Of a DNA stretch of 35,023 nt, positions 5,611-9,951 are shown piece after piece. Numbering within the stretch: the first letter of the stretch is position 1; each line of letters begins with the position of its first letter. The DNA comes from Fusobacteriota bacterium. GTDB taxonomy: Bacteria > Fusobacteriota > Fusobacteriia > Fusobacteriales > JAAYPW01. The DNA is taken from the NCBI GenBank assembly GCA_012519615.1, contig JAAYPW010000014.1, forward strand, positions 1-35,023, given 5' to 3'. Position numbers and translations under genes: made by a program. Under the pieces are notes generated by a model, which worked only from the letters and a program-made list of their open reading frames with translations, was not told where the DNA came from and did no database searches.

Positions 5611-5626
5611 TGTTTCACATGAAACT
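5611..5626. promoter_or_regulatory. parS-like centromere site (left of origin)
   Basis: TGTTTCACATGAAACT matches the ParB site TGTTTCACGTGAAACA at 14 of 16 positions. It overlaps the last codons and TGA stop of the DciA-like gene. A perfect copy lies on the other side of the origin at 13685. Confidence 0.75.
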
Positions 5627-6511
5627 TTTTTTATAACGTTCTTCATTAATTTTATCTTTTTTTATTTTTTCTAATCTTTTGTCTATTAAATTTTCAATTT
5701 CAACCTCTATTTTATCATTATCATATATATTTTTAGTTAAAATCACATATTTATACGCATAAATATATACTTTATTATACATTTTTTCCAGTAACAACCC
5801 ATCTATTTTATTATCAATATGATCTATAACTTTTATTTTTAGTTTATCATAAAGTTCTGAATCTATATCAGGATATAGCTGTTTAAATTCATAAAATGTT
5901 TTTTTCGGATTATTTAATATTGCGTAATATATATTTTTATGAAATTTCTCACGATAATCACTTTTACAAAGATAACAGATATTCCCATTTCCATTATATA
6001 ATATCCCACAATTTTTACATTTTTTATAGGTAGTATTTAATAAATATTTTTCCCTTTTTATATTTTTAGAAATAATATTATATAATTTAAACTTTAAATC
6101 ATTATCTTCTATAAATTTTATATTCTCTTTTATTCTTCTAATATCCTCTCTATTTAAAGAGATACTCTCTATCTCTTTTGATATATCAATATTTTGTTTA
6201 CCTTCATACATATTGGTTTCATTCTTTATTATACCTACTTTAAATTTAGCATTTTCTATAAATTCCTCACTTATAAATTCATTAATGTTTTTAATTAATT
6301 TAAATCTTAAAAAATTTAATTCTTGTAACCAGGCTGAATTTGCAACAGTAATATATATTATACCATTTTTTATGAAATTTGGTGAAGTTTTTAATGATAA
6401 ATTATCTCCTATGATCTTATCCCAATTACTTTTTATATAATTAAATTTAAAATTTATATTTTTATTTATCTCATTTTGTATAACATTTGAAAGGCTTTTA
6501 ATACTCTTCAT
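5615..6511 (-). CDS. DciA-like DUF721 protein with C-terminal zinc ribbon
   Basis: This 298-residue protein begins with a DUF721 domain (about residues 1-95): conserved Trp30 in SNWDKIIGDNLS, then IIYITVANSAWLQELNFLR, the pattern of DciA, a loader of the replicative helicase DnaB in many bacteria. A charged linker follows, then a four-cysteine zinc ribbon (Cys165, Cys168, Cys179, Cys182 in CKNC and CYLC) and a Lys-rich C-terminal part. Typical DciA proteins are much shorter, so the extra ~200 residues are notable. The start is the ATG at 6509-6511, after GAGGAAGGTG, overlapping the end of recF. A helicase-loading role is inferred from the domain and its place in the dnaA operon. Confidence in the domain is higher than in the function. 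Confidence 0.75.
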   Translation of the reverse strand: MKSIKSLSNVIQNEINKNINFKFNYIKSNWDKIIGDNLSLKTSPNFIKNGIIYITVANSAWLQELNFLRFKLIKNINEFISEEFIENAKFKVGIIKNETNMYEGKQNIDISKEIESISLNREDIRRIKENIKFIEDNDLKFKLYNIISKNIKREKYLLNTTYKKCKNCGILYNGNGNICYLCKSDYREKFHKNIYYAILNNPKKTFYEFKQLYPDIDSELYDKLKIKVIDHIDNKIDGLLLEKMYNKVYIYAYKYVILTKNIYDNDKIEVEIENLIDKRLEKIKKDKINEERYKKSFM

Positions 6512-7577
6512 ACAATACACCTTCCTCAATTTTAAAAAACTTAGCATCAATATCTATTTTCTCTGTTGATGTAATAAATAGCTGCATATTTCTTTTTTTA
6601 AAATACTCTATTACTTTTTTTTGTCTTTCGGAATCAAAAAATGAAATAATATCATCAATTAAAAAAATTGGTGCTTCCTTCTTTTCTTTTATTATCATGT
6701 CAATTTCTGCTATTTTTAATGCAAAAATAACAGAACGTTTTTCGCCTTCGGATGAGAAATTTTTACTTTCTAATCCTGATAATAAAAACATAAAGTCGTC
6801 TTTCTGTGGACCAATTGATGTGTATCCATAATATAAATCTTTCTCTAATTGAGTATTTAAAATCTCTTGAAATATATTATGTACCTCTTTTATATTTACG
6901 ATCTCCACAGAAGGGATATATTTTAGATATAGTTCTGTTTTATTATTAAATAGTTTTCTATAATTTAAATTTAATAGAACTGTTATTTTATTTATATATT
7001 CATATCTTATTTCCATTATTTCACTTGATATTTCAATAAATTTATCATTATATATTTTAAATATATCTGTTTTATGTTTTCTCTCTTTTATATATTTATT
7101 TCTTATTTTTAGAATTTGATTAAATTCTTTCAGTTTACTGTAATATGTGAAATTTGATTGTGATATCTCGTAATCAAAGAAATTTCTTCTTGTAGAAGGG
7201 GAACTCATTATAAGATTAATATCATCTGGTATGAAAGAGATAACATTTATTTTTCCAAAAAATTCATCATACATAATTTTATTTTTATTATAAAAATATT
7301 CTTTTTTACCATTTTTATAGTTTAATGCAATATTTTTTTCCATATCCTTTTCAGTATACTGAATAAAGACTGCACCTGATTTAGCATTATATTTTAATAT
7401 ATTTTTTATATTTGATGTTCTAAAACTTTTTCCAGTGATACCAAAGTAAATAGCCTCTATTAAACTAGTTTTTCCTTGTCCGTTTTTACCATAAAAAAAA
7501 TTAATTTTTTTACTAAATAAACATTTTGCTGATATTAAATTTCTTATATTTAAATAATTAATACCAGTTAAATACAA
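6498..7577 (-). CDS. recF: DNA replication and repair protein RecF
   Basis: RecF is an SMC-like ATPase that helps load RecA at gapped DNA and stalled forks. Its 359 residues are the usual size. Visible motifs are Walker A GKNGQGKT (residues 30-37), the signature SSEGEKRS and Walker B IFLIDDI near the C-terminus, with the usual ITSTE after it. The start is TTG at 7575-7577, placed five bases after AAGGGGTG and 2 nt beyond the stop of the S4 gene, so the two are translationally linked. The sequence is quite divergent outside the motifs, but motif order and gene context make the call secure. Confidence 0.93.
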   Translation of the reverse strand: MYLTGINYLNIRNLISAKCLFSKKINFFYGKNGQGKTSLIEAIYFGITGKSFRTSNIKNILKYNAKSGAVFIQYTEKDMEKNIALNYKNGKKEYFYNKNKIMYDEFFGKINVISFIPDDINLIMSSPSTRRNFFDYEISQSNFTYYSKLKEFNQILKIRNKYIKERKHKTDIFKIYNDKFIEISSEIMEIRYEYINKITVLLNLNYRKLFNNKTELYLKYIPSVEIVNIKEVHNIFQEILNTQLEKDLYYGYTSIGPQKDDFMFLLSGLESKNFSSEGEKRSVIFALKIAEIDMIIKEKKEAPIFLIDDIISFFDSERQKKVIEYFKKRNMQLFITSTEKIDIDAKFFKIEEGVLYEEY

Positions 7578-7847: not shown

Positions 7848-9260
7848 TTAATTAGTCATTATCTCATCTTTTATAAGATTAATATCTTTTTCAAAATTTT
7901 TATCTAATTTAATATCTTTTTCTATTTTATCAACACTATGCATTACAGTTGAATGATCTCTTCCACTAAATAAATTTCCTATCTCTTTAAATGGTTTATC
8001 TAACATAGTTCGTATAAAATACATAGCAACTTGTCTAGGCACTGCAATCTCTTTTTTTCTACTTTTAGATTTAATTTCATCTAATGTTGCATTATAATGT
8101 TCTGCAACTTTTTCAAGTATTTTTTCTTCATTTATATGTCTTGATTTACTTTTTTTCTCGTCTAAAAATACCTCTTGTACAAGATCAATAGTAACCTCTT
8201 TTCTAAGTAACGATGCTCTGGCTATTATTTGATTTAATGCACCTTCTAATTCTCTAATATTAGAATTAATTGTTTCAGCAATATATCGTAATACATTTTC
8301 AGAAACTTTTATCTTATCAATTTCAGCTTTTTTACGTAATATAGCAACTCTTGTTTCGTAATCAGGTTGCTGTATATCTACAGTTAATCCCCATTCAAAT
8401 CTTGAAATCAATCTTTTTTCAACATTAGAAATATCTTTCGGAGGTCTATCACTTGAGATTACAATTTGTTTACCATCTTGATGTAATTCGTTAAAGGTAT
8501 GGAAAAATTCTTCTTGTGTGCTATCTTTTCCTGCTAAAAATTGTATATCGTCAATTAATAAAAGATCAAGTTTACGATATTTTGCACGGAACTCCATCAT
8601 TTTACCTTTATTAATTGAATTTATTAAATCGTTTGTGAATTGTTCTGATGAACAATAAAATATTTTTTTATTATCATCAATTTCAAGAAATCTATTTCCT
8701 ATTGCATGCATTAAATGTGTTTTACCAAGTCCAACATCTCCATTTATAAATAAAGGATTATATTTACTTTTTTCTGCATTATTTTCTGGTTTATTTGACA
8801 CGAATTCTGCTGCTGCATGTGCTAATTCATTACTTTTACCAACAACAAAATTTTCAAATATATGTTTTTTATTAAGATTGTTACTAATTCCGTTAAATAA
8901 ACTAATAGATCTAGTCTTTTTCTCTTCATAATAATTTTTTCCATATTCATAATCATGATTTTTTTCTGGAATATCAAATTTTTCAGTATTTTTTAAATTA
9001 TCTTTCTCAACAACCTCTATATCAATTGTACTTACATGTTCATTATCGTACATTATAGTATTAAGAGCTTCTTCTAATTTATCAATATAATTTAAAATTT
9101 TATTTTTTTGATAAATGTTTTCAACACTAATTATTAATTTATTATCTTCAAATTTTTTTGGCGTAACATTTTTTAACCATGAATTGTAATCAACTTCATT
9201 TATTAATTGAGAAACTATTTTTAATATACTATTCCACAATTTTTCTGCATTATTTTCCAT
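7848..9260 (-). CDS. dnaA: Chromosomal replication initiator protein DnaA
   Basis: DnaA binds the origin boxes, opens the duplex and recruits helicase. The 470-residue form has domain I (1-80), a polar linker (about 85-130), the AAA+ domain with Walker A GDVGLGKT (174-181) and Walker B LLLIDDIQ (233-240), and the C-terminal DNA-binding domain IV with AVPRQVAMYFIR and the signature GRDHSTVMHSVDKIE. I choose the ATG at 9258-9260, 12 nt after GGAGGT; an upstream GTG at 9293 would put the SD inside the coding region. A DnaA box lies in the leader (9286-9294) and others upstream, consistent with autoregulation. The gene is divergent from rpmH across the origin. Confidence 0.97.
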   Translation of the reverse strand: MENNAEKLWNSILKIVSQLINEVDYNSWLKNVTPKKFEDNKLIISVENIYQKNKILNYIDKLEEALNTIMYDNEHVSTIDIEVVEKDNLKNTEKFDIPEKNHDYEYGKNYYEEKKTRSISLFNGISNNLNKKHIFENFVVGKSNELAHAAAEFVSNKPENNAEKSKYNPLFINGDVGLGKTHLMHAIGNRFLEIDDNKKIFYCSSEQFTNDLINSINKGKMMEFRAKYRKLDLLLIDDIQFLAGKDSTQEEFFHTFNELHQDGKQIVISSDRPPKDISNVEKRLISRFEWGLTVDIQQPDYETRVAILRKKAEIDKIKVSENVLRYIAETINSNIRELEGALNQIIARASLLRKEVTIDLVQEVFLDEKKSKSRHINEEKILEKVAEHYNATLDEIKSKSRKKEIAVPRQVAMYFIRTMLDKPFKEIGNLFSGRDHSTVMHSVDKIEKDIKLDKNFEKDINLIKDEIMTN

Positions 9261-9301
9261 AACAACTAAATTACCTCCAAATTTTTTTTCCACATAATGC
9301 T

Positions 9302-9330
9302 ACTATAGCATATTTTTTAAAAATTTACAA
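9302..9330 (-). promoter_or_regulatory. Candidate dnaA promoter
   Basis: On the minus strand, TTGTAA (9325-9330) and TATAGT (9302-9307) are 17 nt apart, with TG just before the -10 (extended -10). The start of transcription would fall next to the DnaA box at 9286-9294, and two further boxes lie just upstream. Confidence 0.5.
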
Positions 9331-9629
9331 ATTAATACTTTTCCACTTTTCAACATACTTATCCACAAGACAATTTGAATAATTAAAGACTTTTTTCACT
9401 TTTTCCACTTTTTGTTCAAATCTCATATTAACAATTCCACCCTTATTTTTACTTAATCTAATTTTTTTTTTCCACATTTTCTTTTTTTTTGTTAATACAT
9501 TGTTAATATCATATTAATAATATGTTAATAACTTATTTTTAAAAAAATAAATGTGCAGAACTTATTATTTTTCCACAAACAATTAACATACTTATTTAGA
9601 TATAATCCTTATAATATCTCTATTTCAAC

Positions 9630-9660
9630 AATTCCACACCCACTACTACTATTACTATTA
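9630..9660 (+). promoter_or_regulatory. DnaA-trio unwinding element
   Basis: A box-like AATTCCACA (9630-9638; 6 of 9 match) is followed by a C-rich CCCA and then six triplets CTA CTA CTA TTA CTA TTA (9643-9660). Their complement reads 3'-GAT GAT GAT AAT GAT AAT-5', the DnaA-trio consensus. AT-only sequence follows. The arrangement box, GC cluster, trios matches the basal unwinding element known from Bacillus. Confidence 0.75.
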
Positions 9661-9739
9661 TTTTTAATTATATTATTTCTTTATTTGTAATTGTGTAAAA
9701 CTCTTTTTTATTTTTTTTATTTTTTTTTATTTATTTTTC

Positions 9740-9768
9740 TTGACAAATATTTTTATTTTTTATACAAT
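9740..9768 (+). promoter_or_regulatory. rpmH operon promoter
   Basis: A consensus -35 TTGACA (9740-9745), a 17-nt spacer and TACAAT (9763-9768) lie about 50 nt upstream of the rpmH start. Confidence 0.8.
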
Positions 9769-9816
9769 ACATTTCTAATTATATATGTATTAAATATTTG
9801 TAGGAGGTGAATTTAG

Positions 9817-9951
9817 TTGAAAAGAACATTTCAACCAAATAATAAAGAAAGAAAAAAAGATCATGGCTTTTTCCAAAGAATGAAAACTAAAAGTGGAAGA
9901 AACGTACTAAAAAGAAGAAGACAAAAAGGAAGAAAAAAATTATCAGCATAA
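9817..9951 (+). CDS. rpmH: 50S ribosomal protein L34
   Basis: A 44-residue, very basic protein of the large ribosomal subunit. The sequence begins [17 protein letters not shown], has [21 protein letters not shown] in two shorter conserved blocks, and ends KLSA, the full L34 pattern. The start is TTG at 9817-9819, six bases after AGGAGGTGA. It is the first gene right of the origin and has its own strong promoter. A hairpin between it and rnpA probably lowers expression of the downstream genes relative to L34. Confidence 0.97.

What the first reader, a model, noticed from the sequence alone, without database searches (positions are those of the whole stretch)
9630..9660. DnaA-trio unwinding element at the rpmH end of oriC
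Six perfect trios (CTA/TTA, complement 3'-GAT/AAT-5') follow a C-rich spacer and a box-like AATTCCACA. This predicts the exact opening site and direction of DnaA filament growth. The box next to the trios is degenerate (6 of 9), which is atypical.
Basis: partly seen in the sequence, partly recalled or inferred. Interest (0 to 1): 0.6.

Follow-up and report, generated by a model that had tools for sequence, protein, structure and literature searches.

The report
Replication origin opening site, two-sided
This is the spot where a bacterium of the Fusobacterium order probably starts to pull its two DNA strands apart for copying; it follows the known DnaA-box/DnaA-trio grammar, but sits on the unusual side of the dnaA gene and faces, across the opening site, a second DnaA box at a nearly fixed distance that relatives also keep.

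Summary
AATTCCACA (9630-9638), CCCA and six perfect trios CTACTACTATTACTATTA (9643-9660) are there; the run is unique in the 35-kb window and essentially never arises in shuffles. The element is a DnaA-trio 'basal unwinding system' (BUS). Relatives from three families keep it between dnaA and rpmH: two boxes 8 bp apart, a 4-bp spacer, then trios pointing to rpmH. 27 outgroup origins share this grammar, but all on the other side of dnaA. New here: a DnaA box in opposite orientation, TTTTACACA (9692-9700, minus), lies 49 bp from the first trio. A box at 47-52 bp is kept in 8 of 12 genera (shuffles: mean 0.2, maximum 2), although the AT-rich DNA between is hardly alignable. Opening and DnaA filament growth towards rpmH are inferred, not shown. 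In passing: the sister family that includes Fusobacterium lacks DnaA; the dnaA slot holds a plasmid-type Rep protein with its own repeats, and the BUS is gone.

The parts
7848..9260 (-). dnaA (470 aa)
   Evidence: NCBIfam TIGR00362 E=4.8e-156; Pfam Bac_DnaA, Bac_DnaA_C, DnaA_N
9261..9816 (.). oriC: 556-bp dnaA-rpmH gap, 18.9% G+C
   Evidence: box core TTCCAC 7 forward, 0 reverse, shuffle mean 0.25; GC skew flips
9338..9367 (+). distal block of three same-facing boxes (TTTTCCACT, TTTTCAACA, TTATCCACA), proposed DnaA anchor
   Evidence: 28 of 30 bases kept in the Haliovirga-type relative; similar in L003
9286..9294 (+). DnaA box TTTTCCACA
9468..9476 (+). DnaA box TTTTCCACA
9569..9577 (+). DnaA box TTTTCCACA
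9622..9630 (+). BUS distal box ATTTCAACA (overlaps the proximal box by one base; 8-bp period)
   Evidence: 8-bp tandem pair seen in relatives and 27 outgroups
9630..9638 (+). BUS proximal box AATTCCACA
9639..9642 (+). 4-bp C-rich spacer CCCA
   Evidence: 4 bp at the BUS position in nearly all relatives and in 27/27 outgroups
9643..9660 (+). six DnaA-trios; the bottom strand 3'-GAT GAT GAT AAT GAT AAT-5' is the predicted strand bound by DnaA
9661..9691 (.). AT-rich rest of the unwinding element; trio register continues to 9681
   Evidence: 45-bp window 9647-9691 is second least stable in the gap, tied with 9506-9550
9692..9700 (-). opposing DnaA box TTTTACACA, 49 bp from the first trio base
   Evidence: 47-52 bp in 8 of 12 genus representatives, shuffles mean 0.2, max 2
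9740..9768 (+). probable rpmH promoter TTGACA-17-TACAAT, outside the opening site
   Evidence: 11 of 12 consensus matches
9817..9951 (+). rpmH
   Evidence: TIGR01030 E=9.6e-21
5615..6550 (-). DciA-domain gene in the same operon, probable helicase operator
   Evidence: PF05258 E=6.5e-13; no DnaD-type PF07261 in this genome

Best explanation
A basal unwinding system. DnaA anchored at the box cluster nearer dnaA delivers DnaA to the tandem pair 9622-9638. The first subunits distort the C-rich spacer, and DnaA then grows as a filament on the bottom strand, one subunit per trio, towards rpmH, opening about 9640-9690. The opposing box at 9692-9700, about five helical turns (53 bp) from the proximal box, binds a further DnaA that bounds or holds the far end of the bubble. 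DciA then helps load the helicases. Shown here: sequence, location, grammar and its conservation, the opposing box and its spacing, conserved DnaA residues, DciA present and DnaD not found. Inferred: binding, opening, direction, and the role of the opposing box.
For: Unique, non-chance trios. Same element in the same place and direction in relatives from three families. Same 8-bp box period and 4-bp spacer in 27 outgroup origins. B. subtilis residues that touch the trio strand (E183, N187, I190, I193, R202, K222, E228) and the arginine finger R264 match in this DnaA (alignment to 8btg; roles from PMC10721633); only N196 to G and E223 to D differ. Opposing box. Negative control: in the sister family without DnaA, the rpmH-upstream regions that could be read have no consensus boxes and no CTA trios.
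Against: No binding or melting data. Both BUS boxes are weak. The segment 9506-9550 is equally unstable. The opposing box is missing in several relatives. The 47-52 bp interval was chosen after looking at the data; outside the Leptotrichia-type genus that suggested it, 7 of 11 genera still have it. In this genome the opposing box overlaps a leftward promoter-like match.
Confidence: 0.85

Rival explanations
1. The real opening site is the GTTAATA-rich segment 9491-9550; the trios are secondary.
For: Window 9506-9550 has the lowest stability, -41.0 against -41.2 kcal/mol for 9647-9691.
Against: No trio array or box-plus-spacer grammar there; the segment does not come up among the best matches to the two relatives compared, while the trio element does.
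Confidence: 0.07
2. The trio run is chance or a simple repeat in an AT-rich gap.
For: The gap is 81% A+T; looser HTA patterns give chance hits elsewhere in these genomes.
Against: 1 of 5000 and 0 of 5000 shuffles; same place, direction and spacing in relatives.
Confidence: 0.02
3. The BUS is real but the opposing box is only part of general box clustering or of a leftward promoter.
For: Promoter-like TTTACA-16-AATAAT overlaps it here; boxes are common in oriC.
Against: It is the only reverse box found in a gap where all other boxes face forward; in the Leptotrichia-type relatives it is a full TTATCCACA or TTTTCCACA at 47-49 bp.
Confidence: 0.3

Closest known systems
Bacillus subtilis BUS (EMBO J 2019 PMC6669920; Nat Commun 2023 PMC10721633)
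   Same: Box pair, short G+C-rich spacer, trios 3'-GAT-5'; six trios for seven DnaA subunits in the cryo-EM model; DnaA trio-contact residues conserved.
   Different: There the BUS is downstream of dnaA and DnaD binds opposite the trios; here it is upstream of dnaA, a DciA gene is present and no DnaD was found, and an opposing box is present.
Clostridioides difficile oriC2 (PMC7561715)
   Same: Almost the same trio run: CACCTACTACTATTACTACTATGA.
   Different: Located in the dnaA-dnaN gap, bipartite origin; unwinding mapped there, and no clear trio on the rpmH side.
DciA-type origin in the dnaA-rpmH gap (PMC5109545)
   Same: Opening mapped on the rpmH side of dnaA, with a DciA-type helicase operator.
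   Different: 13-mer unwinding region described; no CTA trio array mentioned in the passages read.

Membership tests
DnaA-trio basal unwinding system | at least three in-register 3'-NAN-5' trios | tested here: met
   six CTA/TTA, 13 NTN in register
DnaA-trio basal unwinding system | DnaA box within 16 bp of the trios, at most 2 mismatches (search rule of PMC8287927) | tested here: inconclusive
   3 mismatches to TTATCCACA, 2 to TTTTCCACA, the commonest full box of this gap
DnaA-trio basal unwinding system | tandem boxes and short G+C-rich spacer | tested here: met
   8-bp pair and CCCA spacer, as in 27 outgroups
DnaA-trio basal unwinding system | DnaA with trio-binding residues | tested here: met
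   alignment to 8btg, residue roles
DnaA-trio basal unwinding system | strand separation that needs boxes and trios | not testable with these tools
   needs purified DnaA
bipartite oriC1/oriC2 origin | second box cluster downstream of dnaA | tested here: not met
   only about 46 bp separate dnaA from the next gene, an S4-domain ORF

The most novel reading that the evidence does not exclude
The opening site is two-sided: a BUS and an opposing DnaA box on the same helical face form a bubble of fixed length, the opposing DnaA setting the end of the filament or receiving the second helicase. Relatives L003 and L004 even have a second, opposed trio array behind that box. Some outgroup origins have an opposing box one helical turn further away.
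Probability: 0.3. Interest if true: 0.65.

Novelty: new variant of a known kind. Interest (0 to 1): 0.5.

Why it matters
The BUS models read here are one-sided and leave open what limits the bubble and how the second helicase is placed. A phased opposing DnaA box that is kept while the DNA between changes gives a direct mutational test. The order also offers a natural experiment: families with DnaA keep the BUS, and the family that lost DnaA lost it.

Tried and rejected
Duplex stability alone does not choose between 9491-9550 and 9640-9690. Counting boxes over the whole window is uninformative (63 found against 62 expected). A loose HTA pattern over the order gave mostly chance hits. No trios or boxes were found downstream of dnaA. 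The Rep protein of the sister family was not folded, because the structure tool admits only window sequences and some locus sources.

Full report
Observation. Six CTA/TTA trios at 9643-9660 follow AATTCCACA and CCCA. Shuffles of the 556-bp gap reach six trios in 1 of 5000 cases and never with a box in range; no second run of five exists in the window, and the full pattern occurs once without mismatch in the 1.80-Mb genome.

Setting. The gap separates dnaA (minus) from rpmH (plus), with gyrA, gyrB, a DciA-domain gene, recF, an S4-domain ORF, rnpA, yidC, jag and mnmE around it. GC skew is -0.28 to -0.38 on the left and +0.23 to +0.35 on the right. All TTCCAC cores in the gap, seven of them, face rpmH. 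The assembly is a draft (158 contigs). The nearest relative held, G001, resembles Haliovirga abyssi of the order Fusobacteriales: its second contig starts with a gene like the first gene of the Haliovirga abyssi plasmid pHIC.

Comparison. Upstream of dnaA, G001 has ATTTCCACA-TCCC-CTACTACTACTACTACTA; family f3 has ATA trios behind, for example, TTCCCACA-TTTCCACA-GTGC. The pair period is 8 bp and the spacer 4 bp at the BUS position in nearly all relatives; a few f3 loci were anchored by eye (L004, L007, L008, L013, L017, L026, L028), and L008, L013 and L029 fit the grammar poorly; L030 and L043 gave no anchor. Of 80 dnaA loci from other phyla, 27 score as clear BUS: all lie downstream of dnaA and point away from it, all with a 4-bp spacer; the 8-bp period was part of that scan's definition, while the spacer could be 3, 4 or 5. 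So the grammar here is canonical, the proximal box is normally degenerate, and the location is the lineage's own. Opening on the rpmH side is not unique to this lineage: it was mapped there in another DciA organism (PMC5109545).

Opposing box. A reverse DnaA box lies at 49 bp in the window, 51 in G001, 50 in L003 and L004, and 47-49 in the Leptotrichia-type loci. With one locus per genus, 8 of 12 have it at 47-52 bp; 1000 shuffles gave a mean of 0.2 and a maximum of 2. The DNA between trios and box in the window is about as similar to its relatives as composition predicts (0.32-0.48 against 0.40-0.48), while the core is 54-80% identical; some other pairs of relatives do show similarity there (up to 65%), so the loci are not all independent. 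In the outgroup, 5 of 27 have such a box at 59-61 bp, shuffle mean 0.18, about one helical turn further. Both intervals were set after looking. The literature searches made here did not show such a box described.

Protein. Alignment to the B. subtilis BUS structure 8btg with the contacts listed in PMC10721633 shows E183, N187, I190, I193, R202, K222, E228 and R264 conserved; N196 is G and E223 is D. Among the f3 DnaAs aligned, a 5-residue insertion sits at the K222 loop and the trios are mostly ATA; window and G001 keep the AGK loop and CTA trios: a possible co-change, not tested.

Mechanism. Inferred: loading from the box pair, melting at the spacer, filament on the bottom strand towards rpmH, helicase loading through DciA. 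DnaD (PF07261) is not found in this genome.

Side finding and control. All 29 searched genomes of family f4 lack Bac_DnaA_C; in the wider sample, PF00308 gives f4 only weak partial matches, at best E=3.4e-12 against about 1e-45 or better for true DnaA. In f4 loci inspected the gene facing rpmH, followed in L064 by recF and dciA, is a protein of about 590 aa related to the first gene of plasmid pHIC, which is followed by parA and parB, and to the first gene of Ilyobacter plasmids. It matches in nearly all f4 genomes (59 of 61), in none of the f3 genomes, not in G000, and in G001 only on contig 2. Pfam places it only weakly (RPA, E=3.7e-4, one member). Its upstream region has five same-facing repeats TGTNTATNNNCANTAATA in L064 and L067, shuffles about 0.1, no consensus DnaA boxes, and GC skew flips there in three chromosomes. 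A 2007 genome paper called the F. [quoted passage not shown] a 2020 paper knew no DnaA-less free-living bacteria outside cyanobacteria (PMC7198777). In the f4 rpmH-upstream regions that the script could read (14 of 20 loci), no CTA trios or consensus boxes were found.

Verdict. A real, canonical BUS in an uncommon place, with a new conserved opposing box of unproven function.

Noticed in passing
L064:3563-5308:-, L066:1042-2829:+, L070:905-2671:+, L190:1-1653:+: Sister family f4 (Fusobacterium and kin) lacks DnaA; the dnaA slot facing rpmH holds a plasmid-type Rep protein (a homologue starts the rep-parA-parB plasmid pHIC). It looks like a chromosome whose DnaA was replaced by a megaplasmid initiator; not found described in the papers searched.
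   Followed up: partly
L064:5308-5968, L067: Five same-facing repeats TGTNTATNNNCANTAATA about 80-105 bp apart, candidate iterons of that Rep; no DnaA boxes.
   Followed up: partly
L191: pHIC upstream of its rep gene has its own repeats, TTTCTAAAATNANNGTANTG type.
   Followed up: no
window 9338-9367: The best conserved block of the gap is a triple box near dnaA (28/30 in G001), a likely high-affinity anchor.
   Followed up: partly
L003 and L004, minus strand behind the opposing box: A full second BUS-like unit (TTTTCCACA, 4-bp spacer, ATATTATTAATA) faces the first one.
   Followed up: no
A1 alignment, window DnaA residues 241-246: The f3 DnaAs aligned have a 5-residue insertion at the loop that touches the trio strand in B. 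subtilis, and their trios are mostly ATA instead of CTA.
   Followed up: no
L124, L135, L122, L102, L157: Outgroup origins with an opposing box at 59-61 bp from the trios, close to the next gene's start.
   Followed up: partly
window 9491-9530: Repeated GTTAATA motif, easily melted, not among the best matches to the relatives compared; role unknown.
   Followed up: partly
window 5615-6550: The DciA-domain ORF is 311 aa, with the DciA domain only at residues 32-99; dnaN is not next to dnaA.
   Followed up: no
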